This document shows, one piece after another, positions 10,099 to 35,237 of a stretch of DNA of 64,000 bases (its first letter is position 1; every line of letters starts with the position of its first letter). Origin of the DNA: Gamsiella multidivaricata. Its lineage: Eukaryota > Mortierellomycota > Mortierellomycetes > Mortierellales > Mortierellaceae. The notes under the pieces are model-generated. The model worked only from the letters and a program-made list of their open reading frames with translations. It did not search any database and had not been told where the DNA came from. A program made the translations under genes and the position numbers. The DNA is taken from positions 93,759 through 157,758 of the forward strand of contig NW_026251790.1 in assembly GCF_025024155.1 (NCBI RefSeq), given 5' to 3'.

Positions 10099-10328
10099 AC
10101 CATAGCACGTACGGCCACATATGGGTCTCCATCTTCAGGAGCAGGCTTCTCGTATTCCCTATTGTATCCACTCAGTACAACGCGTAACATCACCCCATGT
10201 CCAGTTGCTCATGCTGCAATAAAGCGTTCGTCTTTACGATTTATTCTTATGCGTTGTGGTATGGATCACCTCCATGATGGATACAGAGAGCAATATCCCA
10301 TATGGAGCATCGACATTAGACCATAGCA

Positions 10329-10364
10329 GACCTCTGCGACCTCGAGGTCGTAGCTCCAGAGGTC
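10329..10364. repeat. Nested palindrome
   Basis: A perfect 14-bp palindrome CGACCTCGAGGTCG (10337-10350) is flanked by GACCTCTG and its complement CAGAGGTC (10357-10364). It could form a hairpin. It is repeated in the other arm near 28729-28764. Confidence 0.7.
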
Positions 10365-10746
10365 CAGTGCAGGTCCACGAAGCAGCCTAAAATGGCCCAC
10401 AGCACGGTATCTGTTCTCCGCCAAGTCATGAGCCCTGGTGGCGGACGCGGCTCCTGTCTCGAAACGACTCTACACACACGACCGTGACAGGATGTCTTGG
10501 TTATGCTCCACTTACAGTCAGTTCGGAATCACTCCACAACCCTGCAAACGAACGAACAAACCAATGAAGAGCAACCAAGCTATATCACGTCTCGACGGAA
10601 AGTGCGGGTAGGCACAGCAATCGGAAGCTTAACAGTGACCAAGATGTACGGGTTGCGAAATGCAGATGCGGATTTAATGGAGCAGAGCTATAATGTACAC
10701 GGTATGGTATATGAGGCTACAGAAGCTGAGTGGCCATGGGGATCTT

Positions 10747-10935
10747 TTAAAGGAGACTGGGACCAGTGGCGATGCTATAGCTCGATTTTTTCATTGCCAG
10801 ATCGATGACCTGATCGAGGGTCAGGAGGTTCGACTGGTTGGCAGTGCGGGTTGTTTGGATCGACGAGCGGGGGGTCTGGACTGGGGTCGAGGCAGCAGAG
10901 GAGGTCTTGTTCTTGTTGGACTTGAAGAAGGGCAT
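10747..10935 (-). CDS. MPFFK-family small protein 1 (left arm, outer)
   Basis: 62 residues, one exon. It starts MPFFKSNKNKTSSAAS, continues with a Thr-Pro segment (TPVQTPRSS) and ends with a predicted amphipathic helix (LTLDQVIDLAMKKSS) and a GPSLL tail. The frame stays open upstream, but all paralogs begin at MP[FL]F and a TATTTATA box lies at 11126-11133, so this start is chosen. There is no signal peptide, cysteine or membrane segment. The 5' leader carries six tandem 9-bp GAGTAGCTT units, against three in the right-arm twin. One Thr (SIQTTRT) is Ile in the twin. The function is unknown; the TP sites are possible proline-directed phosphorylation sites. Confidence 0.75.
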   Translation of the reverse strand: MPFFKSNKNKTSSAASTPVQTPRSSIQTTRTANQSNLLTLDQVIDLAMKKSSYSIATGPSLL

Positions 10936-11869
10936 GGCTGAGATTGGGTTGTTGCTTGACGGAGAGGAGATGCTGTTGGTGATGATGAAGATCTTGAGTT
11001 GGTTGCTTGGAGTGCTTGAGTAGCTTGAGTAGCTTGAATAGCTTGAGTAGCTTGAGTAGCTTGAGTAGCTTAAGATGCTTGAGGTGTTGAGATGGAGAGC
11101 AGCAAGAAAGTGGGGAATGCAGACATATTTATACACACGAAAGGAAGAAGCACTGCGTTCTTTTTCGGAGGAAAAAAAAGAAAAAAAAGACAAAGAATAA
11201 CCCTCCCAGAACAGGTGCGGTTCTTTCCAGGAGTGTGCAAGTCCGTTTGTGCACCTGCAGCGCCGTATGTCTCTTGGCCACTGTGTGTGTTCGGTATCCC
11301 CACTACGTGACATTGCCTTCCATTCTTAGCACCATTGGACCATTGGGGCGATGGATGCTTAATTTGACACCGCGCAAGTGCTTGTTGTTGCCCTAATATG
11401 TCGTGCAACCCCTGGCGCGGCTTTATTTCTGGACTGGGCATGTTCTCCACTGCGTTCTCGGCAAATAAAATTGACATCACTGCTTCTTGAGAGCACATTG
11501 CCAGGGCGAGGAGTAGAAATGAGCGATGGCGGGGGGAGAATTAAGGTTGCCGAGCCAAGCGCGACAGTTTCTTCACGCTCCACTTCTCCGCTGGGTCCAG
11601 CTGCGGTCGTAGTTGGCGTCAAATGCGTGTGTACTATTGCTATGCGCTGCGTTGTTGCTTGGCTGTCAAAGCAGTGCCAAGGTCCGAAGCACTCAGGGAA
11701 TCATAGCGGACAGGGACGTATAAAAAGGACTACGGTTCTCTGTTTCTTTAAGTTCCTCATCCACAAACGCAACTGACAACAGTCCAAAGCAACTCCACTC
11801 AAGCAGCTCAAGGCTTCCATCATCACCAACAGCATCTCCTCTCCGTTAAGCAACAACCCAATCGCAACC
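10936..11869. promoter_or_regulatory. Bidirectional promoter of MPFFK genes 1 and 2
   Basis: Two MPFFK-family genes diverge from this 0.93-kb region. It holds TATTTATA (11126-11133) for the minus gene and TATAAAA (11719-11725) for the plus gene. The 17-bp CATTGCCTTCCATTCTT at 11311-11327 lies between them and also occurs upstream of another family member (33367-33383, opposite orientation). Confidence 0.55.
10990..11075. repeat. 9-bp tandem repeat in a 5' leader, variable between arms
   Basis: Six GAGTAGCTT-type units here match three in the right arm. This explains the 27-bp offset between the two arms. Confidence 0.85.
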
Positions 11870-12070
11870 ATGTCTCTCTTCAAGTCCAACAAGAACAAGA
11901 CCTCCTCTGCTGCCTCGACCCCAGTCCAGACTCCAGCCCAGACCCCCCGCCCGTCGATCCAAACAGCCCGCACTACCAACCAGTCGAACCTGCTGACCTT
12001 CGATCAGGTCATCGATCTGACAATGAAAAAGTCAAGCTACAACACGGTCACTGGTCCCAGTCTCCTCTAA
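11870..12070 (+). CDS. MPFFK-family small protein 2 (left arm, inner)
   Basis: 66 residues in one exon. It begins MSLFKSNKNKTSSAAS and has a doubled Thr-Pro module (TPVQTPAQTPRPS), then NLLTFDQVIDLTMKKSSYN and GPSLL. It lies divergently from protein 1. A strong TATAAAA sits at 11719-11725, about 150 bp upstream. Its positional twin in the right arm (27045-27233) shares this gene's promoter and 3' flank but has the coding sequence of the outer gene, so the left copy probably keeps the older state. The role is unknown; it should be intracellular because no signal peptide is present. Confidence 0.75.
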   Translation: MSLFKSNKNKTSSAASTPVQTPAQTPRPSIQTARTTNQSNLLTFDQVIDLTMKKSSYNTVTGPSLL

Positions 12071-12265
12071 CGAGGAGGTGCACGTCTCTCCAGGCATTCC
12101 CTCATATTCAACTCCGCATTCAACATCACATCAAATTGTACAATAGTCCTGAAAATCCAATGCAATAAACGTATACCTTTGCGCAAATATAAATAAGCAA
12201 CTGTTGCTTAACATGATGATTGGTTAATAGGATGCCAGAAGATAGATCTATTTCGACTCAACAGA

Positions 12266-15200
12266 CTAGGGAGTGAATGTGATTGAGGTGGAGGATCGCA
12301 GTGCGGTTGTGCTCGAGGATGGTCGAGCATGCATCGACCCATGGGACTGTGTATAACTCGAATTATCGCTCAGCATCTTTGTAAGAGGTGCGGGCGGCTG
12401 AGGGAACGCGCGGAAGGCTTCGAGACGTCGCAGACGCAGGCGGTATAGAATGTCGTCTAGACAATGCTCGATGCTGCAATGGTTCTTGATGATGGATATT
12501 TCTATGAAACGACAGTAGAGTGAAGCGTATTAGTAAAATACAAGGGCGAAAAAAAAAAAAGCAGAAGGGAGAGCTGAGGGAGGAAACACTTACTTGGCCA
12601 TGTGGCACGTTCTCCTTTCAGGGTGGCATCAACCAGGAACTGGACAGTTGGATTGGTGACGATATTCAGATAGTCATCGATGCCGAGATCGGGCACAATC
12701 GTGATATCACCGTAGTAACGCTGCGACATGATCGCCTGCACTTTCTGGATCAGCTCAGGCATAATCCCGAGGATCGACATCTATGAGATATCCAAAGGAA
12801 AGAAAGGAAATGGCTGTTAGATACGAAATCAAACCATAGTATGATACCTTAGGTTCCAAAAGTAAGCCATACTTGGTTCATTCGGTGCTGCAGCTCAAAT
12901 CTCGCTTGGTAGAGCATCCAGCCTACAACTCGGTTGGTTGGAGATCGGGCTAGCGAATTGTGCAGAAACGGTACGATATATGGATTGACTTGACACACAA
13001 TAAAGTGGTTCACGTTGAACAGCTCCGACAGTTTGTTCATCGGAAGGTCACTAGAAGAAAGTTGATGTCAGATTAGTCGTGTCCTAAGTAGGGAACCAAA
13101 TATCTCCATAGCTCCAGAAGCTACTTACCCGTCGACGGATCCATCGATCCAATGGTATCCTATCAAAGGAGTCCCAAAGTAATATAGAGAACGATTAGAT
13201 TGACGCTTGAAGCACCGTATTAGAAAGTGAATTCCAGTCGACTTACGTGACGGATTCCATTGAACCTCTTCTCCGTTTTTATCTTTGGCCATCAGAGGCG
13301 CCGAGTTGTAGATGAATGGAGCTGCGCAAGATGTTGCTCTACCGATAGAAAGAGCGTTAGCACTGAGCACAACGCAACCAGGCCACGGCAGCCAAAGTAT
13401 ATATCGCACTTACACTGCAGACCAAATGAGGACATTGGGCGCAGTCAGGTAGTTCAAAAGTCGTGGCATTTCGAACGTCGCGGAAGTGCTCACTGTGACA
13501 TTAAGGATACGTCTTGTTCTGTTGTATGCTTCCTGAAAGGTGACATCTCCAATGTTGTCCTTCAATGCCGCTTTCAGCACCTGAGCGTCGAATAATGCAC
13601 CTACGAGATAATAACAAGTATACAACGGTTTGAATGAGAAGCAATAACAGAGAGAGCCGGCATAGATAATGCTATGTTTTGTTTGCAATACCATTCTTCA
13701 AAAAGTGGATGAGTCTGGCCAGAACGTCTCCTTGCTCTTCAGGGGTGTGAAAAACGGTCTATGTCGTAAGCAAAGGTTGCTAGGTAGATTAGAAAGATGA
13801 TGTCCCAGTAGTTAAACCAAGTCAACCGATGAATGCGAGAATAGTGGGACTTACAAAGTTAAACTTTTCAAACTGGAGCATAGATGGGATTTCTTCATCG
13901 GTGCGCGTGCAAAGTATGGCCGCAATGATCGAACCGCACGAGGACCCAGAAATGATCCTTGGCAGCAGTTGGGTCTCGTAGAGCGTTTTGATGACTCCGA
14001 TATGCATCAGGCCCATGGTTGCGCCTCCGCTGAGCAAGAGCGCCGTACGGCCAAATGCTTGACGAGTGTGGGTGAAGAACTCTAGCTTGGCAGCCATCGG
14101 AAAGTCATCGATCTCTGTATCGCAGATGATGTTGAGCTGCCGGATGACCTCAGAATTGTAATCCTCAATTAGACGCTTCGTCCCGATGTTGGTCTCTGCA
14201 TACAATTGGGGTCGTCCCACATTGCCGAGGTTTCGGGAGAGCGAGGTACGGAGCAAGAAGATCATTAGGCCAAGATCGCCGGATTCTCGGGCCTTGGCCA
14301 ATTGGGATAATCGCTCCTGCATTATCTCGTAGTCGTAATGGGGCGATCTGGGATCATTTTTCCACTTGTCTTTGCCTTGAAGTCGGTCCAGGATGGCGGC
14401 TGCTTCGGCCCATTGTTCGTAATTCGTGGCTGCTTTGAGCAGATGGGTATAGTAGGCCTTGGGATCGCGCGATCGAAGTAGGGACTCGTAGATTTTCTAT
14501 ATACGTAGCGACATAGGACCAATTGTGCCATTATTAGATCTTTTGCCTTGGACTGAAGAGTTGAGAGCAATATGCAGCGCGGACGATCATGTGCCAAAAA
14601 TCTAAGTGAAGACAGGGTGTGAAAGATATATATCTCCACAGGCAGCAATGAGCGTTAACGTCATTTGAAGGTGGTCTGCATACCTTTGACCAATGCTTGC
14701 CGACAGCATAAGCGACGGAGCTCACTGTGGAGGTGACAGTCGGGATTAGGCCCTTGTCCTGCTGCTGTTCTCTCTGCGTTTCCTGGCAATTATTCAACTC
14801 TTCCTCTTCCTCCTCATCGTGCCATCCGCCATTAGAATCAAAGGAGAAGGACCTTCGTGAGAGGTGTGGTCGTGTCTTTGGAAGGAGTGTGGCCCCTCCG
14901 CTGCTATGTTTCTCCAGGTCCTTATCGTTAATGTGTTTGAGTCGACTCTTCAGCTGGCTGGGGAGGTCATTCAGCATTTTAGCACGAGTGTGGGTGTTGA
15001 GGCGTGCCAATGTCAAGGGTTGATCCTCTTCACTGTCGTCATCCATTAGCATCTCTCTGCGGATCACGATTTCCCCATGGTCAAAGTCTCCTTCCACGAT
15101 GCCCTCGTCCTCCTCCTCGTCTTCCTCCCCCTCGTCATCGTCTCCACCATCATCGTCCTCTTCATCTTCGTCGATATCGAACTCATACAGACTGGGTGGG

Positions 15201-15307
15201 CCTGTACTACAATGATCAGAATATGGGAAAGGAAGGTTGGTTTCGGAGATACATAGATCATAATCCTCGTCCATAACGGGGACCACATTTGGCGAAGTCC
15301 TGCTCAT
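12266..15307 (-). CDS. Patatin-domain triacylglycerol lipase, Tgl3/4/5-SDP1 type
   Basis: Nine exons (15307-14684, 14496-13855, 13758-13692, 13600-13414, 13338-13247, 13159-13129, 13050-12873, 12780-12594, 12501-12266) give 747 residues. Residues 1-208 are a disordered, highly acidic extension with Asp/Glu runs. Then comes the DUF3336-like helical region (RDPKAYYTHLLKAATNYEQW) and the patatin core: glycine-rich SGGATMG (about 364), nucleophile motif GSSCG with Ser near 394, and DGSVDG near 543 supplying the second half of a Ser-Asp dyad. SIEHCLDDILYRLRLRRLEAF near the C-terminus is typical of the Tgl/SDP1 group. The family hydrolyses triacylglycerol at lipid droplets. The stop lies about 0.1 kb from the left arm. 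The join of exons 1 and 2 is the least certain; all joins close in frame. Confidence 0.88.
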
Positions 15308-16589
15308 GGTGAATGGGAGCGAATATGTGATGGGTTGGTTATGAACTTGTTGTGGAATGTAGTTATCTATGTGAAGTGTGAAATAGCGAATGCGGGATAG
15401 TGAATATGGAGTGAGCAAATGAAAGCGATACAGAAAATGAGGTAAGGTGCTGTTGCAGCACAGAGACAAAGGAAGGGAGTGAAAGCAGGAAAGGTAGTGG
15501 CGATTGAGATGTCGATTGAGATTAGAATGAGAAGCTGGGTCTGCAGTGATGGTGATGGTGATGGTGAAGGTGGGGGAGTTGAAGAAAACGAAACGCGTGC
15601 CACTGCTTGATTTGGACAGAAGCAGCATGTGAAAAAATGTATGTGTGGATTGTTCGTCGCACGATGTAACCATCGCCGTCGCATGGCAATTTGTGCACGC
15701 TCCCAGGCATTAGGAACGCAGCATATCTCTGCCCTAGACGACCATGGCATAATATTGCATTGGCAGAGTGCAAACAGGACCAATGCGTTTTGCTTTTTTA
15801 CCATGAAAACCTCTTAGAGCAGTTGACACCATTTGGCACTGAGCTTTCTGTATCGGAAAAAAGTCAATAGGGCTGTGGGGAAGGCATGCCCGCTCTTTTT
15901 TTTTTTTTTTTTTTTTCCGGGCCCATGATTACATCGACTCTTGGCTGTGTTGTGTGATCGTCATTGTTGGACCACAAAAAATGAAAAATAGTCGACGCGC
16001 GCTATTCTTATCATCCTCACCTGTGTTCCCCCTTGACCATCCTTTGAACATCTAACCTTGCAACCAACAGACCACAATAGAGTTTGAATTGATAAAACAC
16101 ATCGTGTCCTGGCCGCAGCAGGTTCCAATTTGTGGGTAGACATTTCATGCACAGCTACCGAGTAACCTGGGAATGCTGTCTAACAGAGGGCACCATCAAC
16201 TGCTGCAGAGGAGTAGCAGCAGGAGCCAGAGGGAGCCGGGGCGTATCTTTTATCCAGCTTTCCTGTCTTGGCAAAAACTGGTGCAAGAAAAGAACATATG
16301 CTGTGACTGCGTAGTGGGGCCAAAGTCTTGGCACACAGCAAACCTCGCTTTTATGCACTTTCCCTTCCTTCCTTTTCATCCAACGAACACTTCCCCCCAC
16401 ACACACGCACCCTTTCTTCAGCCCTACCTTTACCTCCTTCGTTCTCCCTCCCACTCATTCTTTCGCTGATACCATCCCGCTCCCCCTTCCACAGTCATCC
16501 TGGCTACATAAGGAACAACAGCAACAGCAGCAACGGACAAACGTCAGCAACAACGCAGGACAGCAGGCGCACTCAACCAAGAAACAGCT
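15308..16589. other. Divergent promoter between lipase and PacC genes
   Basis: About 1.3 kb between two divergent start codons. It contains a poly-T run (about 15895-15917) and pyrimidine-rich stretches. I see no separate gene; frames here extend the lipase leader only. Confidence 0.55.
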
Positions 16590-19353
16590 ATGGAAGGCAG
16601 CCCATCGCCCCCTCCTTTCATCTTCTCGGACGACTATATCTGTCAGTGGGACTCGTGTCTCAAGACCTTTGATGACGCTGAGCGACTCTACACGCATCTG
16701 AAGGACGAGCATGTCGGCCGCAAAGCGCACCATAACCTCTGTCTGACATGCAGATGGGACAAGTGCACAGTACCGACTTTTGCCAAGAGAGACCATATCA
16801 CTTCCCACCTCCGCATCCATGTTGCCTCGAAGCCGCACTGCTGCGAGGTAGGTAGACCAGCACAACCGGTTTATCCTCTCTTTATTTCTTTTGTGCGACA
16901 TGCTTGCATACTTTAATGGTGGATGTCGATCAACTAGCTCTGTGTCTAACCTTTTGATGGCCTCAATAGCTCTGTAAAAAGAGATTTAAGCGACCGCAGG
17001 ACCTCAAGAAGCACGAAAAGACCCATCAAGGTAGCGATGGCGCCATAGTCCCAAACGCCGCAACAGCGTCGAAACCGACATCATCATCCTCAGGGCATTT
17101 GAAACCCGGCGGAAATCCCGCCCTGCCTCTTACTCCCCCAACGGCTCTGGATCGCTCTCCTTCAATCGCTTCCGCCACCACGGGCTCCACCCTCTCGCCC
17201 TACTCTCTACCACTCTCCCCTGCAGATACAGCCGAGTCATGGAACCCCGGTCTTTGTAAGGATTGCCGCCTGACTGTGTCTGTACTCTCTGACGGCAAGC
17301 CAACTAACGTGCATGCGCCTCTTCTTTTGTGCTAGCTTCGCCCTCATACTCGACCAACTCCGATCTTTTCAGCTCCCCCAACGCACCAGACCTGGAATTA
17401 GATATGATGAACAGCTGTTTCGATCGATCCAGTATTGACGTATCTGGCACATACTATGGCGCCTTCCCAAGCAGCAATATCTACGACGACATGGTTTCGC
17501 CTCAGAGTGCTAAGCGATCACGCGATGGCTTTGATGAGGTCTTGTCTGAAACGCTGGGGGCGTTCGCAGTTGAGTCCAAGAAGAAGAAAACGGATGCAGC
17601 TTACAATGAGGGTATGTCAAATTGTGCCGTATGTCATTTCTTCAAGTCCTTTTTAGAGTGTAATGTCTAACGCTGACTAACCTTCACTTCATGCCATGCC
17701 TGTACAGATATAATGGGTCCACTCAATGCACTGTCGGCACTCATGGAAGTCAACCCATTGACATCGGATCGCCTATTGTCATCGCTGCCTAACGTGACAG
17801 ACTGGAATCAGTTTAATCAGCTCAACCACTTTTGCTCGACACTTTTCGAGGATGTCAGTGGAGAAGCCTTCGAACCCCAGTCCTACGACACGCCACTGTT
17901 CCCAGAGTATGAGCAAAAGCCGTCAACACTTGCGTTAGATGCAGAATTCGCTGGAACTATTGATTTAGACAGCAACATGAGTGCATTTAGTACGGCCCAA
18001 GTGGACTCGATCTACAGCACGATTATCCCAGATGATTCGTTCGTGTCTTCGTCGACTTTGGCTTGGAATACATCACTCTCACAACCGGGACCTGCCGTCA
18101 GGCACTCGCAGCCGGTCAAGCATAGTATGCAGCAACCCAATCGGTTCATTCATCCACAGTACGTGTCGCTACCTGCACTGCAGCAGGGTGCTGCCCCGAT
18201 CAAGAACGAGTCTGTTGAGGAGATCATTAAACCAACAGTTGTTTTACAGGAAAAGAGGACATACGTTGAAGTATCTATACAAACAGCGGAGAAGATGGCG
18301 GCGGACGAATTGAGGATGTTGAAGCAGCGACCAACAGTGATAAGGCGGAAGTCGCGCCAGCTCATCGACACTGATGCCCTTTTGGAATCGGTCCCCGAAG
18401 CCCCGGATACGCCTATGCCGGATATTAATGTGGAGGAGACGGTGGCGGCACTTGAAGCAGATATCCCCGAAACTCAGGAGCAGGATCAGTCAAGTAGCCG
18501 TTCTAATGAACAATCACCTGGTGTAACCATTTCTTCAGCACCCACGTCCGCGCCCGAAACAAATTCGTCCAAATACGAAAGCTATCTTCAAAGAGCAAAG
18601 GCCAGGCAAGCGGCCGTCGCTGCCGCCTCTGCTGCAGCAACTGCTGCAGCGATGGAGCCGGTCGACCCTGTCGAAGCCATGTCCCGTCAGCTCGCGCAAA
18701 CACACATCGATGGCACCGACTTCAAGCCCATCCTCAAACCTTCTACCACAAAACCTATCATAGAGGGCGATGTGGAGCGACAGATCAAGGCAGCCAAGGC
18801 ACGTTCTCTATGCTCACAGGACCCCATTCGCAAGCAGCATGCCGAGGTTGTATTGAACCTGCTCAGGAGCATCGATACCATTATGGCCGACCATCGCAAG
18901 GCAGCACAGGCCAAGAGTGTGGCCAACCCCAGGACTGGAGGCGGCGTACATGTGCAGAATCAAGGACAAATCCGGACCGTTTCTTCATACCTCCCTCGCC
19001 GTGGAACTTCCTCGACAACGTTCCATCGCCCCTCGCCGTTACATCATGAACAGAGCGCTGATTCTCCAGATTACAGTAAACTGCGGTCAAGCCTGGCAGA
19101 AGGATCCTCATATTCATCGCCAGCCGTTCTCACGAGCTCTACGGCTCAAAGCAGTGACCATACTCCGTCCTTAAAACATGGATCAGAGGTCTCTACGGAT
19201 TCGCCGGTTCTTTATCCAACCTCGGATCTCCATCATCCGTCTGCCGTTCCGTTTGAGCTTTCGGAGGAGGAAAGGAGATTTATCGAGGAGGACAACGCCA
19301 AGACTGCAGCGGCACAGGCTGCAGCTGCCGGGTATCGTACGGCCCGTGTATAG
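16590..19353 (+). CDS. pacC/RIM101: pH-response transcription factor PacC/Rim101
   Basis: Four exons (16590-16847, 16970-17255, 17336-17611, 17708-19353) give 821 residues. Three C2H2 zinc fingers occupy about residues 18-105. The first has the family's CQW..C spacing and DEHVGRK; the second reads [22 protein letters not shown]; the third reads [19 protein letters not shown], split by intron 1. This three-finger block is diagnostic of PacC/Rim101, which binds GCCARG sites and controls alkaline-pH genes after Pal/Rim-dependent proteolysis. The rest is Ser/Thr/Pro-rich and disordered, with an Ala-rich stretch (about 18600-18660) and a conserved-looking block [16 protein letters not shown] did not identify a processing site. 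It lies between the divergent lipase and the convergent kinase. Confidence 0.93.
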
Positions 19354-19788
19354 AAATGAAAAAGCCGTCCTATATACATACCACTTTACTCCTTTATCAT
19401 TTTTGTGTTATATATAACCTCCTGTATATTGTCTTTTATGTTAAAACAGCACCTTAGTCTGCACTATTAAAACTATAATAAATAGAATGGCTACCACAGG
19501 AAAGCTACCAACACGACTGAGCGCGACTTTACTGGGTCCAGAGTACCTTTATTCAAGCTCTAGACCATATTACTTTGGTGCTGAATGACAGCCCAATGTT
19601 TGGAGATGACGAGGGAGTGAGGAAGAGAAGAGACCACCAAAGGTCGTCAGGTTGGTGTCCGTGTTCATGAAGAAGAGGTAAAATTACAATGGAGAATAGA
19701 TGATAGCAAAAAAAAGGAAAGCAAGGATCATGTCGCGGCCAGCCCGAGGATCGTTTGCGTGTGGATTTCGACGTTGCCTATCGACGGT
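19354..19788. other. Convergent 3' region, no gene
   Basis: 3' untranslated sequences of the PacC and kinase genes, AT-rich, with AATAAA-like signals near 19480. Confidence 0.6.
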
Positions 19789-22700: not shown

Positions 22701-22948
22701 ATGGAGAAGACTAATCAGACAAAACTTACCGACTTCCGACTTTCTGACTTTAACTGGGTTGAGGTCGTTAATGCTGGGTCATAGTAGTCATTTGGGGACT
22801 CGTTCTTGCCCCCACCAAATTTGAAGAACGACCTCAGTTTTGAGTGCAGGTTTGGGGAGACATACGAAGGAGCTGGCGATGCGATAATGGTGAGGGATGA
22901 GGACGAACTTGGAGAGTAGGAGGCGGGATAGTCAGTGGAAGTTGGCAT
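19789..22948 (-). CDS. AGC protein kinase, Nrc2/Fpk1/Kin82 type
   Basis: Seven exons (22948-22730, 21836-21398, 21246-21073, 20972-20847, 20712-20536, 20427-19957, 19826-19789) give 547 residues. About 190 residues of Ser-rich disordered N-terminus precede the kinase domain. The glycine loop is [11 protein letters not shown] (about 197), the ATP lysine lies in YAMK (219), the catalytic loop is YRDLKPEN, and the magnesium motif is DFD rather than DFG. DFD and the activation-loop insertion (about 40 residues, Ser/Thr/Pro-rich, before FVGTEEYIAPEV) are family traits of the plant PVPK/fungal Nrc2-Fpk1 branch. Fpk1 and Kin82 activate phospholipid flippases in yeast; Nrc2 affects hyphal growth. Intron 1 is long (about 0.9 kb). 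It converges on pacC and diverges from the acyl-CoA synthetase. Confidence 0.9.
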
Positions 22949-26825: not shown

Positions 26826-27044
26826 AGCACTTGTGAATTTCAGATCTCTAGCGAGGTACCTTATTAAATAATCTCTACGCAGCTGCAGATCTCGTGCGTC
26901 GTCATCGTGGAGGAAGATGTCTTTGTTATATCGCTACCAACTAGTAGCTTTTATTATTTGTTCAGGAACTATTGTACAATTTGATGTGATGTTGAATGCA
27001 GAATTGGATATGAGGGAATGTCTAGTGGAACGCGCGCCTCCTCA

Positions 27045-27233
27045 TTAGAGGAGACTGGGACCAGTGGCGATGCTATAGCTCGATTTTTTCATTGCCAGAT
27101 CGATGACCTGATCGAGGGTCAGGAGGTTCGACTGGTTGGCAGTGCGGATTGTTTGGATCGACGAGCGGGGGGTCTGGACTGGGGTCGAGGCAGCAGAGGA
27201 GGTCTTGTTCTTGTTGGACTTGAAGAAGGGCAT
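27045..27233 (-). CDS. MPFFK-family small protein 3 (right arm, inner; converted copy)
   Basis: 62 residues, identical to the product of 28158-28346. By position and flanks it should match left-arm gene 2: its promoter (TTTTATA at 27378-27384, GTATAAAAGGG on the coding strand), leader and 3' flank do. From about 27263, just before the ATG, to near the stop, the sequence instead follows the outer gene, including the SIQTIRT variant of the right arm. I infer gene conversion from the neighbouring gene 0.9 kb away. Domain layout is as in the other members: basic start, TP-rich middle, amphipathic end, GPSLL. Confidence 0.78.
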   Translation of the reverse strand: MPFFKSNKNKTSSAASTPVQTPRSSIQTIRTANQSNLLTLDQVIDLAMKKSSYSIATGPSLL

Positions 27234-27377
27234 GGCTGAGATTGGGTTGTTGCTTGACGGAGAGGAGATGCTGTTGGTGATGATGGAAGCCTTGAGCTGC
27301 TTGAGTGGAGTTGCTTTGGACTGTTGTCAGTTGCGTTTGTGGATGAGGAACTTAAAGAAACAGAGAACCGCGGTCCC

Positions 27378-27384
27378 TTTTATA
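27378..27384 (-). promoter_or_regulatory. TATA box of MPFFK gene 3
   Basis: TATAAAA on the minus strand, about 145 bp upstream of the ATG. It matches the element at 11719 in the left arm. Confidence 0.6.
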
Positions 27385-27792
27385 CGTCCCTGTCCGCTAT
27401 GATTCCCTGAGTGCTTCGGACCTTGGCACTGCTTTGACAGCCAAGCAACAACGCAACGCACAGTAATAGCACGCACGCACGCCAACTGCAACCGCAGCCG
27501 TCTTCTGCGGGCCCGCAGTTAGACCCAGCGGAGAAGCGGAGCGTGAAGAAACTGTCGCGCTTGGCTCGGCAACCTTAATTCTCCCCCCCGCCGTCGCTCA
27601 TTTCTACTCTTCGCCCTGGCAATGTGCTCTCAAGAAGCAGTGATGTCAATTTTATTTGCCGAGAACGCAGTGGAGAACATGCCCAGTCCAGAAATAAAGC
27701 CGCGCCAGGGGTTGCACGACATATTAGGGCAACAACAAGCACTTGCGCGGTATCAAATTAAGCATCCATCGCCCCAATGGTCCAATGGTGCT

Positions 27793-27809
27793 AAGAATGG
27801 AAGGCAATG
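27793..27809 (+). promoter_or_regulatory. Shared 17-bp upstream element
   Basis: AAGAATGGAAGGCAATG occurs here, at 11311-11327 (complement) and at 33367-33383, each time in the upstream region of MPFFK-family genes. The function is unproven. Confidence 0.4.
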
Positions 27810-27986
27810 TCACGTAGTGGGGATACCGAACACACACAGTGGCCAAGAGACATACGGCACTGCAGGTGCACAAACGGACTTGCACACTCCTGGAAAGAAC
27901 CGCACCTGTTCTGGGAGGGTTATTCTTTGTCTTTTTTTTCTTTTTTTTCCTCCGAAAAAGAACGCAGTGCTTCTTCCTTTCGTGTG

Positions 27987-27994
27987 TATAAATA
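27987..27994 (+). promoter_or_regulatory. TATA box of MPFFK gene 4
   Basis: TATAAATA about 165 bp before the ATG. It is mirrored at 11126-11133 in the left arm. Confidence 0.6.
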
Positions 27995-28157
27995 TGTCTG
28001 CATTCCCCACCTTCTTGCTGCTCTTCATCTCAACACCTCAAGCATCTTAAGCTATTCAAGCTACTCAAGCTACTCAAGCACTCCAAGCAACCAACTCAAG
28101 ATCTTCATCATCACCAACAGCATCTCCTCTCCGTCAAGCAACAACCCAATCTCAGCC

Positions 28158-28346
28158 ATGCCCTTCTTCAAGTCCAACAAGAACAAGACCTCCTCTGCTG
28201 CCTCGACCCCAGTCCAGACCCCCCGCTCGTCGATCCAAACAATCCGCACTGCCAACCAGTCGAACCTCCTGACCCTCGATCAGGTCATCGATCTGGCAAT
28301 GAAAAAATCGAGCTATAGCATCGCCACTGGTCCCAGTCTCCTTTAA
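28158..28346 (+). CDS. MPFFK-family small protein 4 (right arm, outer)
   Basis: 62 residues: MPFFKSNKNKTSSAAS, TPVQTPRSSIQT, then LTLDQVIDLAMKKSSYS and GPSLL. It is the twin of gene 1 in the left arm, differing at one residue (Ile for Thr after SIQT). Its 5' leader has three 9-bp CAAGCTACT units. The frame is open far upstream, but the conserved start and the TATA at 27987 place the ATG here. It lacks secretion or membrane signals. The family is unknown to me. Confidence 0.76.
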   Translation: MPFFKSNKNKTSSAASTPVQTPRSSIQTIRTANQSNLLTLDQVIDLAMKKSSYSIATGPSLL

Positions 28347-30064
28347 AAGATCCCCATGGCCACTCAGCTTCTGTAGCCTCATATACCATACCGTGTACAT
28401 TATAGCTCTGCTCCATTAAATCCGCATCTGCATTTCGCAACCCGTACATCTTGGTCACTGTTAAGCTTCCGATTGCTGTGCCTACCCGCACTTTCCGTCG
28501 AGACGTGATATAGCTTGGTTGCTCTTCATTGGTTTGTTCGTTCGTTTGCAGGGTTGTGGAGTGATTCCGAACTGACTGTAAGTGGAGCATAACCAAGACA
28601 TCCTGTCACGGTCGTGTGTGTAGAGTCGTTTCGAGACAGGAGCCGCGTCCGCCACCAGGGCTCATGACTTGGCGGAGAACAGATACCGTGCTGTGGGCCA
28701 TTTTAGGCTGCTTCGTGGACCTGCACTGGACCTCTGGAGCTACGACCTCGAGGTCGCAGAGGTCTGCTATGGTCTAATGTCGATGCTCCATATGGGATAT
28801 TGCTCTCTGTATCCATCATGGAGGTGATCCATACCACAACGCATAAGAATAAATCGTAAAGACGAACGCTTTATTGCAGCATGAGCAACTGGACATGGGG
28901 TGATGTTACGCGTTGTACTGAGTGGATACAATAGGGAATACGAGAAGCCTGCTCCTGAAGATGGAGACCCATATGTGGCCGTACGTGCTATGGTTCACTC
29001 GTAGTTCTCCTTGCAGCCCATCACTAGCAGACGAGTACCAGCAGCCTCCTTGCAGTTTCAATGGCTAAGCAGCTCATTATGGACGCGTGTCTTCATGCTT
29101 CTCTTCACTTTATTGTTGTTGCTAATGGAACAGCTAATATACTTGTGAATGTGGATATGCAGTATTGCAATGTCTTCGTTTCTCACCTAGGCCTCCAAAC
29201 CTGCTGCTGTAGGTTGGGCCAAGAAGAAACCTAAAGAAAAATGAACAGAAACCATCGAACCATCATAGCGTAGTGGACAAACCATACCAAGAGGACAGAT
29301 CGGACGTTGCCTACTGGGTGTCATAAGGCTGAGAAAAAATGTAGTGGTTAATGAGAGCTGTAAACAGCCCAAGATCTTGTGTTCCCCAGTGGCAAAGCCA
29401 TGCACGAATGAAGGATTGCTCGCTCCACCCATATCAAGTACATGTGCATGTTGTCTCCCGTGCCTGCCACCCGAAAGAGCAACTCGTCACCCAAATGGAC
29501 GGCTCTTCATCCGAAAGACAACTTGAACCTGGAGCTAGTGTCTCTCAAGACAAAAGCCAGGTCTGCGAAGCCAAACAAAAAGAAACAGAAAGAGCACCGC
29601 TTAAAGCGCAGACAGCCCCGCACGAAATACGCACAAGATACGTACCCCTGCGGTTCTGGTCATCGGCGATGTGAGTGTGTTGGCCCAAGGTGTACTGACA
29701 TGCTTCCAACCCCAAGAGCCCGACGCACCGTAGCCAGTACGTGGACAACCCAGGCCAGCAGAGAGCTGGGGAGTGACGTGTTTTCCACCCATGTAGCTCA
29801 ACACCGCCTTGCTCGATCTTGACTCGGACCAAGCACATCATTACCATTACCTTTTTCAGCAACCTTGACAGGGCGGACCAGGGAGGGCGACCAGGAAGAG
29901 AGGGACCGATGAAGGGAGGGGCCAATGAAGGGAGGGGCCAATGAAGGGAGGAGGAGAAGGCAGGGCAGAAAGGGAAGAGACAAGTTCTACGCGCACGTCC
30001 TCTTGGCCGTCTTTATTTAGCTGTCACAAGCCTCACGCGTCCACTAAACACTGCAAAGACGCGT
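28347..30064. other. Outer right arm, no intact gene
   Basis: Mirror of 9029-10746. It holds only the decayed MxLPVM fragment and the nested palindrome (28729-28764). Open frames are those already rejected in the left arm. Confidence 0.5.
28995..29051 (-). pseudogene. Decayed end of an MxLPVM repeat gene (right arm)
   Basis: Exact mirror of 10042-10098, with the same KEAAGTR..LLVM..KEN reading. The decay therefore came before the arm duplication or was homogenised with it. Confidence 0.55.
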
Positions 30065-30334
30065 AAAAAAATAAAATAAAAAACAACTGAACAGACTCCT
30101 CGCCAAGAAGTCGCGACCAAATATTTTTACAATAGAAAACCAATTCAAAAACTCACCAAGCCTGAAATTCTTGTCCGCCGAAAATGCAGTCCCTATAGTG
30201 TTCTCAGATTTTATAATAAAAAAATCAATTCAAAAAAATTTCAATGTACACCCGCACAATCTCTAGCGTCAGAACCTGTACAAATTCCATGTTACGCGAT
30301 GCACCACTAAACGTAGATTATCGGCTCAAGTATA

Positions 30335-31350
30335 TTGAGCGCCACCTACGGAACCTGGGCAGGCAAAGAGCACAAGCTCCGGCCACTTCAACCTGAGGTT
30401 TTTATGGACGAATCGTACTGCCACCTCGACCATGCTGCGACAAATCGATGGGTCCCAAAGAAGGGTGGGACCGTGTCAGAGCTTGGTCGGAAACTCCTGC
30501 TTGTTATATTTGCTGCATTCATTATGAGGTGGAGCAGGGTCAGAAAGCCGTTGCAGGCTCGGTTCGTCAAGGATAGCGTACACATCTGGCCGGCGATCGG
30601 GAAGACTCATCTCGGGGCAACAAATCGTGGTGGGGAATATGAGGCTGGATTATGGAAAGAGGTCCCAAAGGAAATCCGAGAAGCTGGCATCATTGCGGAC
30701 AATCGCGACTATCATGATAACTTCACAGCCGATGTGTTTGATGGCGTATTCGAGAAGCTGTGCAGGAACTTCACTAAAATGAGGTTTGACCCTTGTAATA
30801 TCCACCTCGATGGCGCGTCATACCATTCCGCACACTCAACAAGAAACCCACCAAATCTGCTAATGTGGCGGCCATGAACTCCTTGTAACAACAAGGCTAA
30901 ATGGAACCTCAACAAAGCAGAGCTGTTGAAGTACATTGGAGACCTCCCCGATCGATCAACATGCACAATTTTCGACATCTCAGCAAAGAACGGTCGCTTA
31001 CAAGCTTCAACCAGTTGAGAAGGTCAGGGTAATTGTAAAGCAGATAGTCGCCAACAAAACAAAAGGGACTTAGATCGTTTGGGCTTCAAAGTCCTGCTAG
31101 ACAAGCACTTTGCTGGTGTACCCGCCAGCACACTTATATCCCTGTCGAAAGCAAGCAGATATGGGCAAAGTCACTGGCGCCTCCAAATAACATCTACCTT
31201 CATTTACTAGTACTCTTACGCGGACACACCGCAGCCCTCACGCCTATCACGCAAAGACTATATGATAAGCAGGTCTTTTCGACTATAGGGTCCCTTAATT
31301 TTCCTTGCGATACCATAGCCCTTCTTCGTGACTTATACTTAATGAGGTTG
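30335..31350 (+). pseudogene. Broken Tc1/IS630-like DDE transposase
   Basis: The first open stretch (30335-30877) carries family blocks: MDESYCHLDHAATNRWVPKKG with the first catalytic Asp, WPAIGKTH, DNRDYHDNFTADVF, and CNIHLDGASYHS with the second catalytic Asp. These are typical of the DDE endonucleases abundant in Mucoromycota and Glomeromycota. After 30877 the reading breaks: stops and shifts interrupt pieces such as NKAKWNLNKAELLKYI and KNGRLQAST. The N-terminal helix-turn-helix is missing and I see no clear terminal inverted repeats. It begins 0.27 kb outside the right arm. It is dead as it stands; an insertion here may have helped the rearrangement (inference). Confidence 0.75.
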
Positions 31351-31869
31351 TCAATCCAGACCTGAGACGCGCTGTTCCCAATGTATCGCATTAGTTATTA
31401 CTACTGCTTCTCGTATGCTACTTCAAGTTCATGGGGAAAAAAAGAAAGAAGAGGTCGCTTAAATGGGTTGCCATGCCGTGTATGTATTCCATAGTACGTA
31501 TTCGATGCTGCCGAGAGCATCCGACCCTACGCTTCTCAAGGCTTATGGTTTTCTACGTGCGTTCTATATTCGCTGACAGTCAGAAAACGAGAATTCGGCT
31601 AATTTGTCTACCGCTCAAATCCCTAGACATTTTCTTTCTTTAAAGTTTTCCAACCGCGGCACGTTTGACCAGCGTTTAGGAACCCTTTCACGGAATTCAA
31701 GCTTAATAAAACATCCATAATATCCCGGGATAGCTCTTTTGCTCCTGCAAAAGACATTGATTGCTAGAAATGGAAGTCATTTGGTGGACAATGTCTCCGA
31801 ACAGCATGCTCGTAAGAAGCCATCGCCGAGTTGGGTTCTGGACATTGAAATGACTTGGCTCGACGCGAG
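31351..31869. other. Intergenic, possible transposon debris
   Basis: No supported gene. Short interrupted frames suggest decayed mobile DNA running into the promoter of MPFFK gene 5. Confidence 0.4.
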
Positions 31870-31877
31870 TATAAATA
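31870..31877 (+). promoter_or_regulatory. TATA box of MPFFK gene 5
   Basis: TATAAATA about 100 bp before the ATG. Confidence 0.6.
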
Positions 31878-31972
31878 CGATCACCAATGACCATCCCAAT
31901 TCTCCTCCTTCAACGCAGCAGTTAAAAAATCACACAACAGACAATCCACGCCTAATCTACCACATCCCGACC

Positions 31973-32167
31973 ATGCCGCTCTTCAAGTTGACCTCTCCCA
32001 AAAACCAGAGCACGACCCCAACCACCTCGCTCGCAGAGCCGTCTCGTGCCTCGCTGGAAGGAGCCCGCCATGGATGCCCGGGTCCTGTTATGACCGTCGA
32101 TCAAGCCCTGTTTCGTATCATGCGAAGGACTGTGAACAACGCCGCCTGCGGTCCCTACGTTGGATAA
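31973..32167 (+). CDS. MPFFK-family small protein 5 (divergent)
   Basis: 64 residues. It begins MPLFKLTSPKNQSTTPTTS, then SRASLEG, and ends VMTVDQALFRIMRRTVNNAACGPYVG. The start, the T-x-DQA helix and the GP-x-hydrophobic end match the family. The TPxQTPR core has decayed to TPTTSLAEPSRAS, and it is the only member with cysteines (two). It is on the plus strand, just after the transposase relic. A frame open upstream would add residues, but the paralogs and the TATA fix the start. The function is unknown. Confidence 0.68.
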   Translation: MPLFKLTSPKNQSTTPTTSLAEPSRASLEGARHGCPGPVMTVDQALFRIMRRTVNNAACGPYVG

Positions 32168-32433
32168 GGTCGTCCTCAAAAATCAAAAGGGCGATGAGGC
32201 ACAATGCGCAAAGACGCGTTTGATGATCAAAGACATTTATTCTTTTCGACTTTTTTTGTTACGACTCCACACTTTAACGACCCATAGTACTATTTCCCAT
32301 CCTTATTCAAGTTAATAAACGATTTTTTTTGTAGATTTAATGGGTTTACGCCTTTCATGTTTCTCCTTGGGGGTTTGTGTGCGTAGGCATGTTCCCAGCG
32401 CTTAACGCGACCAAATCGGAATCACTACAGCAC

Positions 32434-32469
<36 letters not shown>

Positions 32470-32663
32470 AAGCATACGTATGGCATTAACAAACGAAGAT
32501 ATGTTTTTACTGGGAAACAGCTGGTGTTTTTATTGTTATGGGAGGGTTGTTATACAAATCGGAACGACGATGCTAGTAATGCTGGTGTTGATGAATGCAA
32601 GGAGGGGGATTTTTTTTCCTCTGGGTATAGGAGAACCTCAGTGGGGTGCCTCGCTGTGACACA
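32168..32663. other. Intergenic with a T16A22 tract
   Basis: 3' flanks of two MPFFK genes that converge here. A block of 16 T followed by 22 A lies at about 32434-32471, a perfect homopolymer palindrome and a place where assemblies often err. No gene. Confidence 0.6.
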
Positions 32664-32861
32664 TTACAGGAGGTTGGAACCAGCGGTCATGTTGTAAGTC
32701 GACTTCTGCATCGCCATATCGATGGCCTGGTCGAGTGTCAGCGTGCCGGTCTGCTTGGGGCGGGCAGCCTGCATCGAGGAGCGAGGAGTCTGAGCTGGAG
32801 TCTGGGCTGGGGTCGAGGCAGCAGAGGAGGTCTTGTTCTTGTTGGACTTGAAGAAAGGCAT
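32664..32861 (-). CDS. MPFFK-family small protein 6
   Basis: 65 residues: MPFFKSNKNKTSSAAS, a doubled module TPAQTPAQTPRSS, then TLTLDQAIDMAMQKSTYN and GSNLL. The first 16 residues equal those of the arm genes, so it is the closest family member outside the duplication. The TATA (TTTTATA on the plus strand, 32985-32991) lies about 125 bp upstream. The shared 17-bp element (33367-33383) lies about 0.5 kb upstream. It has no signal peptide; the role is unknown. Confidence 0.75.
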   Translation of the reverse strand: MPFFKSNKNKTSSAASTPAQTPAQTPRSSMQAARPKQTGTLTLDQAIDMAMQKSTYNMTAGSNLL

Positions 32862-32984
32862 GGCTAAAATTGTTGAAACTTGAGGGAAGGATGGGTACTT
32901 GAGAGTTTGGTTGGTTTGAGTTGCTTTGCGCTGTTGGGAGATGCTTTGTGAGTGAGGAAAAAAAAAATAGGGAAAAGAGACCTC

Positions 32985-32991
32985 TTTTATA
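32985..32991 (-). promoter_or_regulatory. TATA box of MPFFK gene 6
   Basis: TATAAAA on the minus strand, about 125 bp before the ATG. Confidence 0.6.
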
Positions 32992-33612
32992 CATAGTCGT
33001 TTTCTTCCACGTCTGCGGAGTTTCTATTCTTGGCACTTCCATTTGCAACGGCCAAGGAATGAATGGAGCATGGGCCCCTAGATTATTCTACGGTTGCCTG
33101 GGCATCAAATTTAGGATGCACCGGCGCGGTCTGCACTCGTCGACTTATGCCCGTAGCTGTTTGCTGGAGTTCGAAATAAATGCCGCGCGCGCGGCAAACA
33201 TGTCTGGTATGTGCCTCTATGCCGCGCTCAGATTTTTATTTCGGCGTCTGAATTTTTCTTTCCTCAGCGGATGCTCTTATGGAAGCGATGGATGGTGTCA
33301 AGCATTTGTGGGATGTTTTGCGCGACAAATAAGGATGGGAAAGGTAAACGTCGAAAGAAAAGCGCCAAGAATGGAAGGCAATGCATAATTATAAACAAAG
33401 CTGTGGAGTTCAACCTATCCAATATGCTGTACGGAGCCGTTTATACGTGTTCTGTGCCTGACGTGTTTATTGACTAAGGTCATGGTATCTGATGTTGCAT
33501 GTTCAAAAGGAAATTCAGTAAAGTATTAAGTGCTGTTTATTAAAATGCTAGGATATTGTGTGATGTGTAGAATGGTGGGAATGGGGCTGAGGCTCCGAGG
33601 AGGGATCAGCTG
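32992..33612. other. Upstream region of MPFFK gene 6
   Basis: Contains AAATAAATGCCGCGCGCGCGGC (an inverted GCCGCGCGCGCGGC core near 33182-33195) and the 17-bp shared element at 33367-33383. Parts resemble the duplicated-arm promoter (an ATCAAATT..GATGC block beside a GCGCGG). No gene. Confidence 0.5.
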
Positions 33613-33822
33613 CTACTGGATAAAGGGACCAAAGGCAGCGTTCGACATCTTGGTCTGCATGATCATGAGCATGGCCTCGTCTTGGGTCATCGCACTCTGG
33701 TGCTTATGGCCTTGAGGACGCTGTTCCTGCATCGAAGTTCTAGGAGTCTGGGCTGGGGTTTGCACGGGAGTCTGGGCAGCCGAGCTGGTCTGGTTCTTGC
33801 TTGGGCGCTTGAAGAATGGCAT
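33613..33822 (-). CDS. MPFFK-family small protein 7
   Basis: 69 residues, the longest member: MPFFKRPSKNQTSSAA, TPVQTPAQTPRTSMQEQRP, a His/Gln patch (QGHKHQ), then MTQDEAMLMIMQTKMSNAAFGPFIQ. It shares RTSMQEQRP with protein 8, so 7 and 8 form a subgroup. The open frame extends 15 codons upstream, but the family start is MPFF. A TATATATAA element (33881-33890) lies about 60 bp upstream, next to a long A run, followed by CCATTCTTAGC, the core of the shared upstream element. The C-terminal helix is Met-rich. The function is unknown. Confidence 0.72.
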   Translation of the reverse strand: MPFFKRPSKNQTSSAAQTPVQTPAQTPRTSMQEQRPQGHKHQSAMTQDEAMLMIMQTKMSNAAFGPFIQ

Positions 33823-35045
33823 ATTGGAGATGTGTGGAGTGCTGTTGGTGATGAGATATGGCGCCATCTGGTCGAGTCCATTATATATAAAAAAAAAAAA
33901 AAAAAAAAAAGCGCCTTGGACTCCATTCTTAGCTACTCTTTACACATCTCTTACTTATTCTTACTTGAGAATGATGACTCGGCTCGTTTTCATCTCAGCG
34001 AGACCCGATTCACGTCCATGCTCAAGACATGCGGAGTCTAGACAAACGTCTTTACGCGCGCTTAAGTCATGCTAGAGTAGAACTCAGTACACTCAGCATT
34101 TCCCTCGACCCAAAGGCGGACTCTTTACGGTAGTTCATACGCTTGAGGGGTTTGGGGGTGATCCAGCATTTAAATGCCGCGGGTCGTGGGAGGCAAAGTC
34201 GACGATGGTTGGTTCAGTAGGGATGGGGTTGTGTTGGCCCATGCATTTGACCAGACTCAGCGTTTCGGGCATTAAAATCGTGAATGAAATGTTGAGAATG
34301 ATTCCATACAAACCGCAGCGATGCAGAAGCAAGGCAGAGTAGAACGATGGGTAAGAATACAGGGTACGTGGCCTTTTGAAGCAGTCCGGTCATGAGCATG
34401 CCTTAATCAGCGAGGTTTGCTAAAAGTGAGGACTTCAGTCATCATGTTGTGTCTTTCGGAGAATCGTGTTTGGGGCAGACGCTATCCCTGTCTCTGTTCC
34501 AGGAAGGAGTCGGACAACGACGCAGTAGTGTCGATTGCGGCGGAGGAAAGTGGGGTGACGCATTGGGGGGGAATCGATTTACTCGAACGTTTGGAGGAAG
34601 AGACGCCTGTCAGTGAAGGGGTTTAGTAACTCCTCTTTGAGGAATGCTTATTTTTATGAACCATGTCCAATTTCCTTTCTAGGCATGCCTTTTGTTCCCA
34701 TCATCCTGTCCAAATTTACTGCCCGCCATCCCGCAGCATTTTTTAATCTCCTCAGGCACGGAAGCCGTGCGCGCTTTTTTCATCATTTCGACACTCCGCC
34801 CGCTATTTTTTCTTTTCATTCCTTCGCCGATTTTCTCATCAGAACATCCGGCATGGCCCATGCTCCGTCATCGCATGTCTAAGATTAGAAACAAAGCATG
34901 ACCCGTGTGTTCGTTCGTTTTCAGTATTTAAATGTGAATCCCGCTCCTCATTCGCAACACAACCAAACAAGTCTACCAAAACAATACCTCTTCCTCTTCC
35001 TCTACCAACACCCAAACCAATCAGCCAACAAGACCAATCTCAGCC
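33823..35045. other. Divergent region between MPFFK genes 7 and 8
   Basis: 1.2 kb with no supported gene. It holds a long A tract (about 33889-33910), CCATTCTTAGC at 33923-33933, and TATTTAAAT at 34925-34933, about 115 bp before gene 8. Its leader is rich in CTCTTCC/CAACAC. Confidence 0.5.
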
Positions 35046-35237
35046 ATGCCTCTCTTCAAGTCCTCTAAGAACCAATCCGCCTCCGCTGCCTCGACCCCAG
35101 CCCAGACCCCTCGTACCTCCATGCAGGAACAGCGTCCCGCTCAGGGCCAGGTTGAAAAGATGACTCGCGAGCAGGCCCTCGACATGGTTATGCGAAAGTC
35201 CATGAGTGATGCCGCTGCCTCCGCATTCATCCATTAA
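35046..35237 (+). CDS. MPFFK-family small protein 8
   Basis: 63 residues: MPLFKSSKNQSASAAS, TPAQTPRTSMQEQRPAQG, then EKMTREQALDMVMRKSMSDAAASAFIH. It keeps the basic start, the TPAQTPR core and the amphipathic end, but lacks the GP near the C-terminus. It is closest to protein 7. TATTTAAAT lies at 34925-34933. The antisense frame over the same bases is a shadow. The function is unknown; no secretion signal is seen. Confidence 0.74.
   Translation: MPLFKSSKNQSASAASTPAQTPRTSMQEQRPAQGQVEKMTREQALDMVMRKSMSDAAASAFIH

What the first reader, a model, noticed from the sequence alone, without database searches (positions are those of the whole stretch)
10747..35237. Eight-member family of 62-69-residue TP-rich proteins (MPFFK family)
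Seen: genes at 10747-10935 (-), 11870-12070 (+), 27045-27233 (-), 28158-28346 (+), 31973-32167 (+), 32664-32861 (-), 33613-33822 (-) and 35046-35237 (+). All are intronless, begin M[PS][FL]FK with a basic, Ser-rich start, most carry a TPxQTPR[ST]S core, and end with an amphipathic T-x-[DE]-[QE]-A helix. TATA boxes lie within about 60-190 bp of the ATG in every case. Inference: abundant, inducible intracellular proteins whose TP sites may be phosphorylated, and whose helix may bind a membrane or partner. I recognise no described family.
Basis: partly seen in the sequence, partly recalled or inferred. Interest (0 to 1): 0.82.

Follow-up and report, generated by a model that had tools for sequence, protein, structure and literature searches.

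The report
Fungal phospho-ladder small-protein gene family
The eight tiny look-alike genes are real members of an apparently undescribed fungal protein family whose best-kept feature is a row of serines and threonines exactly four residues apart, the spacing typical of a stepwise phosphorylation switch; what the proteins do is untested.

Summary
They belong to a larger family: at least 23 copies in this genome (22 intact, one frame-broken) in two contig clusters, 18 of the 23 in nine divergent pairs. Contig lengths identify Gamsiella multidivaricata. Three searches list 153 related proteins; every one with an organism name is from Mortierellaceae (13 genera). No Pfam family matches; paper searches found no description. 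Copies are under purifying selection (median dN/dS 0.41), and all 22 intact ones have codon bias towards histone/HSP70 genes. AlphaFold gives one C-terminal helix and a low-confidence, probably disordered remainder; the helix is only weakly amphipathic. Strongest new result: Ser/Thr at -8, -4 and +4 around the [ST]PR core is almost never lost. On a tree of 137 units, columns -8 and -4 show 11 S<->T swaps and no change to another residue; three neighbouring Ser/Thr-rich columns show 44 swaps and 46 losses. Linker lengths differ only by multiples of four. This is the geometry of a GSK3-type primed phosphorylation ladder. I propose a phosphorylation-switched basic arm joined to a helical partner-binding tail. 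Phosphorylation, kinase, partner and expression are untested.

The parts
10747..10935 (-). family gene W1, 62 aa; TATAAAT at 11127-11133; ladder S13,T17,T21,S25 = 10861-10899
11870..12070 (+). family gene W2, 66 aa, divergent partner of W1; TATAAAA at 11719-11725; five-step ladder = 11906-11956
27045..27233 (-). family gene W3, 62 aa; TATAAAA at 27378-27384; ladder = 27159-27197
28158..28346 (+). family gene W4, 62 aa, divergent partner of W3 (coding regions differ by one synonymous change); TATAAAT at 27987-27993; ladder = 28194-28232
31973..32167 (+). family gene W5, 64 aa, most divergent of the eight; lacks the TPR core, Pro at ladder position 0 when aligned by eye; TATAAAT at 31870-31876
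32664..32861 (-). family gene W6, 65 aa; TATAAAA at 32985-32991; five-step ladder = 32775-32825
33613..33822 (-). family gene W7, 69 aa; TATATATA at 33882-33889; five-step ladder = 33733-33783
35046..35237 (+). family gene W8, 63 aa, divergent partner of W7; TATTTAAA at 34925-34932; ladder S13,T17,T21,S25 = 35082-35120; predicted helix residues 41-61
9012..12147 (.). left arm of a ~3 kb inverted duplication carrying the W1/W2 pair (pieces 88-99% complementary to the other arm)
26968..30081 (.). right arm of the inverted duplication, carrying the W3/W4 pair

Best explanation
An apparently undescribed, gene-amplified family of small, probably abundant proteins without a recognisable signal peptide. 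The first ~30 residues are a basic, probably disordered arm (M-x-[FLI]-F-K...K-N-[KQ]); the last ~20 hold a short helix. Across the arm lies a ladder of Ser/Thr spaced exactly four residues apart ([ST]-x-x-x-[ST]-P-x-Q-[ST]-P-R-x-S). Proposed mechanism: a first kinase marks the near-invariant last Ser (context R-x-S-hydrophobic), then a GSK3-type kinase steps backwards along the ladder at +4 spacing. Up to four or five phosphates would turn the arm's +3 to +5 charge negative and so release or switch an anionic partner (membrane, nucleic acid or protein), while the more variable helix and tail give each paralogue its own partner. Shown: family, copy number, codon bias, selection, conserved hydroxyl ladder, four-residue register, predicted helix. 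Inferred: disorder (from low model confidence), phosphorylation, the kinases, the charge switch, the partner, abundance as protein, cytosolic location.
For: Family and breadth. Ladder: in 139 distinct cores Ser/Thr stands at -8 in 136, -4 in 138 and +4 in 137 (0 is the anchor), against 113, 104 and 91 at the other Ser/Thr-rich columns -10, -5 and +3. One of the 139, from P0150, is a false second core and accounts for one miss at each of the three rungs. On a FastTree of 137 units, -8 and -4 have 7+4 S<->T steps and 0 steps to other residues; -10, -5 and +3 have 14+16+14 and 14+12+20 (Ala-rich column -9 left out of the comparison). If the 18 flanking columns were exchangeable, the three best-kept all falling on multiples of four has a chance of 0.5%. 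Register: of 101 distinct linker strings, 76 are at 12, 22 at 16, one each at 8 and 20, and one is the false core, after I set in register by eye the 15 KNKS strings that the script anchored on their second lysine. Net charge of the first 31 residues is +3 to +5 in 21 of 22 own copies and +1 in W5. Selection is strongest in the arm and core: pN/pS 0.37-0.47 against 0.86-0.90 in the linker, 0.62-0.63 in the helix, 0.69-0.71 in the tail. Codon bias in 22 of 22. Helix 41-61, pLDDT 82 for residues 41-50, 55-63 elsewhere. GSK3 needs a primed +4 site: PMC10486803 and PMC11240421 (passages).
Against: No phosphoproteomic or expression data. The four-residue step can also arise by slippage of a 12-base TPxQ repeat, which explains at least the TPxQ insertions. 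The cores were found by the [ST]P[RHK] pattern, which hides breaks at 0. Known exceptions: P0115 first unit at -8 and second unit at 0, P0028 at +4, W5 at 0, P0003 second unit one step shorter, and P0147 with the four rungs but without the Pro after 0. Prolines after two rungs fit CDK/MAPK equally well. A charge switch is not required by the data.
Confidence: 0.42

Rival explanations
1. The ladder is a regulated degron: overlapping T-P-x-x-[ST] sites are phosphorylated and read by an SCF-Cdc4/Fbw7-type ligase, so that the proteins exist only briefly after induction.
For: T-P-x-x-[ST] spacing with GSK3-type +4 priming is the core geometry of Cdc4/Fbw7 degrons (PMC10486803, passages); lysines lie nearby.
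Against: The high-affinity consensus wants Pro at +2 and hydrophobics at -1/-2. Around the -4 rung the +2 residue is mostly Ala, around the 0 rung it is Arg; -1/-2 are mostly Ser/Thr/Gln/Ala. At best a low-affinity degron.
Confidence: 0.17
2. The TP sites are ordinary independent CDK/MAPK sites, and the four-residue period is only a relic of 12-base slippage.
For: TPxQ is tandemly duplicated in W2, W6 and W7, and two of the rungs are followed by Pro.
Against: The rungs at -8 and +4 have no following Pro but are kept about as well as the TP rungs, and S<->T exchange without loss at -8 is not expected from slippage. Insertions of other kinds (SSVA, SPAA, PSAN) also have length four.
Confidence: 0.2
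3. A constitutive structural or binding peptide (nucleic-acid, ribosome or membrane binder) whose Ser/Thr matter for contacts or backbone capping, not for phosphorylation.
For: F4, K5, K8 and R23 invariant in 69 aligned members and a net positive arm.
Against: Hydroxyl conservation at a regular step, with free S<->T exchange, in a stretch without predicted structure is better explained by a modifying enzyme (inference).
Confidence: 0.15
4. Rapidly amplifying selfish or non-functional repeats without a cellular role.
For: Recent inverted duplications and one frame-broken copy.
Against: 22 of 23 copies intact, median dN/dS 0.41, codon bias in 22 of 22, and at least five separate placements of the Gamsiella copies forced by supported branches, hence subfamilies older than the genus.
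Confidence: 0.06

Closest known systems
GSK3-primed phosphorylation ladders (e.g. beta-catenin S33/S37/T41/S45)
   Same: Four Ser/Thr at exact four-residue steps, the last one a non-Pro Ser with a hydrophobic residue at +1.
   Different: No sequence homology claimed; here two rungs are TP, the priming context is R-x-S rather than acidic, and the whole protein is only ~62 aa.
Cdc4/Fbw7 phosphodegrons (cyclin E, Myc)
   Same: T-P-x-x-[ST] spacing.
   Different: Lacks the +2 Pro and the hydrophobic -1/-2 residues of the high-affinity consensus.
Protein phosphatase inhibitor 2 (PDB 2o8a)
   Same: Weak, non-significant profile match over positions 8-35, E 0.062.
   Different: A single-sequence search with W8 finds nothing at E<=10. 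The PP1-binding SILK motif (recalled) is matched by 1 of 124 unit starts (MSILK); the commonest starts are MSLFK, MPFFK and MPLFK.
MARCKS-type electrostatic switches (recalled, no call)
   Same: Basic arm with aromatic residues that multi-site phosphorylation would neutralise.
   Different: No myristoylation glycine; much shorter; membrane binding untested.

Membership tests
MPFFK/TPxQTPR family (defined here) | M-x-[FLI]-[FL]-K start, K-N-[KQ], [ST]PR-x-S core, C-terminal T-x-[DE]-[QE]-[AV] helix start | tested here: met
   7 of 8 window genes meet all; W5 has the start and the helix motif but not the core
GSK3-primed ladder substrate | Ser/Thr at i, i+4, i+8, i+12 | tested here: met
   136, 138, 139 (anchor) and 137 of 139 distinct cores at the single columns; exceptions listed
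GSK3-primed ladder substrate | priming phosphate on the last Ser and kinase dependence | not testable with these tools
   needs mass spectrometry and kinase assays
Cdc4/Fbw7 phosphodegron | pThr-Pro-Pro-x-pSer with hydrophobic -1/-2 (high-affinity form) | tested here: not met
   +2 is mostly Ala (-4 rung) or Arg (0 rung); -1/-2 mostly polar or Ala (consensus from passages of PMC10486803)
Any Pfam-A family | score above the curated cut-off | tested here: not met
   8 window members scanned: only PF15302, in 5 members, best E 0.019; member 1 has E 0.062, 13.6 bits against a cut-off of 27
Membrane-binding amphipathic helix | hydrophobic moment above shuffles | tested here: inconclusive
   four windows: 2052, 694, 436 and 921 of 5000 shuffles reach the column-mean profile's moment
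PP1 inhibitor-2-like | SILK motif [GS]IL[KR] (recalled) | tested here: not met
   starts are MSLFK 47, MPFFK 23, MPLFK 19 of 124; MSILK 1

The most novel reading that the evidence does not exclude
Mortierellaceae carry a stand-alone, gene-amplified 'phospho-ladder peptide': a protein that is little more than a processive GSK3-type substrate plus an address helix, made in quantity from twenty-odd genes so that it acts as a buffer, timer or competitive sponge for that kinase or its phospho-readers. No such dedicated multi-copy ladder protein is known to me (recalled, not searched for).
Probability: 0.13. Interest if true: 0.78.

Novelty: new variant of a known kind. Interest (0 to 1): 0.52.

Why it matters
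Mortierellaceae are common soil fungi, some of them used for oil production (recalled), and a widely kept, codon-biased multigene family in them has no name or function in the sources searched. If the ladder is real, it gives a direct test of ordered multi-site phosphorylation in an early-diverging fungal lineage, with many natural variants to compare.

Tried and rejected
Pfam and PDB sequence comparison gave nothing significant. The PP1-inhibitor resemblance was rejected (single-sequence search empty; SILK motif in 1 of 124 starts). An amphipathic membrane helix was tested and left unsupported. Members outside Mortierellaceae: not settled. The profile searches report 256 (E<=1) and 358 (E<=10) proteins but list 120 each, so 136 and 238 were not listed; a third search on a C-terminal region drew only 3 candidates, all Gamsiella. 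Shared promoter words (CTCCGCA in 6 of 12, CCATGCTC in 5 of 12 less-redundant promoters) may be common descent; the background there was small and its p-values are not used. Paper searches on Gamsiella, Mortierella gene families, lineage-specific genes, transcriptomes and six peptide strings gave no description (search listings only). The one peptide hit, PMC2848000, is by its listing a paper on FACT and MCM and was not opened. Searches were listings from which PMC10486803 and PMC11240421 were taken; of these I saw passages only.

Errors corrected: one search used several reference genes in antisense, replaced. Searches were first counts on 120 homologues, replaced. Distances of 10 and 14, or 11 and 15, are KNKS strings anchored on their second lysine; distances 19, 25, 26 and 28 are mis-anchored starts or the false core. 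In one search the leader of the gene at 35046 was mis-measured because it has no canonical TATA. In one search and note 3 the ends of the frame-broken copy were entered by eye and were off by up to 5 bases; one search gives 713324-713508. The divergent-pair count does not depend on it.

Dropped rows: 2 of 175 proteins had no usable core: W5, and P0147, which has the four rungs but no Pro after 0. In one search the filter (one core, unit of 52-80 aa, distinct) left 137 rows and excluded W5, both P0115 units and P0003's second unit, which hold most of the known ladder breaks. P0028 (break at +4) stayed in.
Full report
What is there. The eight stated intervals are intact ORFs of 62-69 residues. 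They align as one family, with one outlier at 31973. The window is part of contig 162 (157,758 bases) of a 37.5-Mb genome in 180 contigs. Public proteins on contigs of exactly 157,758 and 736,129 bases are annotated as Gamsiella multidivaricata, a genus of Mortierellaceae; contigs 162 and 126 have these lengths.

Copy number and layout. Searches of the whole genome with four different members give at least 23 copies: 10 on contig 162 and 13 on contig 126. Of these, 22 are intact and one has its frame broken in a run of C. Adjacent copies form nine divergent pairs 660-1,933 bp apart, which takes in 18 of the 23. The W1/W2 and W3/W4 pairs lie on the arms of a ~3 kb inverted duplication whose pieces are 88-99% complementary. 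Within the W3/W4 pair the coding regions differ by one synonymous change, and the two genes with part of their leaders (267 nt) are 97% alike. Near-consecutive locus tags in other species, such as EC957_009038/009040/009041 and BG005_006129/006130, suggest clustering elsewhere too.

Are they genes? Pairwise NG86 dN/dS has a median of 0.41 (maximum 0.75) over 215 of 231 pairs with informative dS; five were saturated. Against 1000 null codings of each protein drawn from the usage of 13 other ORF pieces of the window, all 22 copies have raised codon adaptation to histone/HSP70 genes: family mean 0.57, window pieces 0.37; the worst case is W5, where 12 of 1000 nulls reach the value. Caveats: I chose the reference set and the window pieces, one reference HSP70 scores only 0.48, and part of the signal may be G+C at third positions. 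A TATA-type match (one CATAAAA, one TATATAT) lies 67-214 bp upstream in 21 of 22 copies; the gene at 35046 has TATTTAAA at -121. An AATAAA or ATTAAA lies 68-168 nt after the stop in 22 of 22. Leaders are poor in G and lack ATG in 20 of the 21 measured. No transcript evidence was available.

Who has it. Profile searches report 256 proteins at E<=1 and 358 at E<=10, with 120 listed each. The three searches list 153 different proteins, and every one with an organism name is from one of 13 Mortierellaceae genera. Some rows bear no organism and the rest of the hits were not listed, so absence elsewhere is not shown. Some public models hold two units or have upstream extensions; whether these are real or annotation errors was not tested. 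On a 144-row tree without public Gamsiella proteins, the 22 own copies need at least five separate places by supported branches, so subfamilies are older than the genus (few columns, bootstrap not settled). In the first tree some divergent partners, such as C126 598394/599234, group together.

Anatomy. Invariant in 69 aligned members: F4, K5, K8, R23. At least 90%: M1, N9, S13, A14, P18, T21, P22, S25, R30, T40. AlphaFold2 on that alignment gives mean pLDDT 64 and a single helix at 41-61, with 82 for residues 41-50 and 55-63 elsewhere. Selection is strongest in the N-terminal arm and core and close to neutral in the linker (uncorrected proportions, 10-11 representatives).

The ladder. Setting the Thr of [ST]PR as 0, 139 distinct cores (185 cores in 173 of 175 proteins) have Ser/Thr at -8 in 136, -4 in 138 and +4 in 137. 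Neighbouring Ser/Thr-rich columns are looser: 113 at -10, 104 at -5, 91 at +3. One of the 139 is a false second core (P0150) and causes one miss in each of the three rung columns. Parsimony on a FastTree of 137 units, which takes account of relatedness, gives at -8 seven S<->T steps and none to other residues, and at -4 four and none. At -10, -5 and +3 the counts are 14/14, 16/12 and 14/20. At +4 Ser is kept in 136 of 137, with no S<->T exchange. Linker lengths fall on multiples of four (76 at 12, 22 at 16, one each at 8 and 20, of 101 distinct strings, the last being the false core, 15 strings set in register by eye), and the insertions are not all TPxQ copies (SSVA, SPAA, PSAN types). Known breaks: P0115 first unit at -8 and second unit at 0, P0028 at +4, W5 at 0, and P0003's second unit, which is one step shorter. 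The pattern used to find cores hides breaks at 0, and the filter dropped all of these but P0028.

Reading. GSK3 recognises a site four residues before a phosphate, and beta-catenin S45 primes T41, S37 and S33 (passages of PMC10486803 and PMC11240421). The family core has this geometry, with the near-invariant last Ser in an R-x-S-hydrophobic context. The arm carries +3 to +5 in 21 of 22 copies, so four or five phosphates would reverse it. I infer a phosphorylation-controlled arm with a paralogue-specific helix. A Cdc4-type degron is a rival, but its high-affinity consensus is not met. The simplest rival is that two TP sites are ordinary CDK/MAPK targets and the period is left over from 12-base slippage; the conservation of the two non-TP rungs speaks against it.

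Novelty. No Pfam family, no significant PDB relative and no paper describing it in the searches made. The family is undescribed as far as these searches reach; the proposed mode of action is a variant of a known one.

Noticed in passing
window 3842-4474 (-) and 7384-8148 (+): Two inverted, related genes for proteins with a signal-peptide-like start followed by ~15-residue tandem repeats (EAINPRMRLPVMDLKE / EAVGPRMRLPVMEMEE); no Pfam match above cut-off. They look like secreted repeat precursors.
   Followed up: partly
window 9012-12147 and 26968-30081; contig 162:76819-78158: ~3 kb inverted duplication carrying the gene pairs, and a further copy of the pair upstream of the window on the same contig.
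   Followed up: partly
contig 126:713324-713508 (in L013): A 23rd family copy whose reading frame is broken in a run of C; it could be a pseudogene or a sequencing error.
   Followed up: partly
contig 126:657688-660046 and 715009-717367: A divergent pair of two distinct subfamily members is present twice about 57 kb apart, nearly identical.
   Followed up: no
P0001, P0002, P0003, P0005, P0009: Public gene models that hold two units or upstream extensions; P0009 ends differently from the genomic ORF.
   Followed up: no
upstream of family genes: Shared upstream words CTCCGCA (6 of 12 promoters) and CCATGCTC (5 of 12); regulatory site or common descent.
   Followed up: partly
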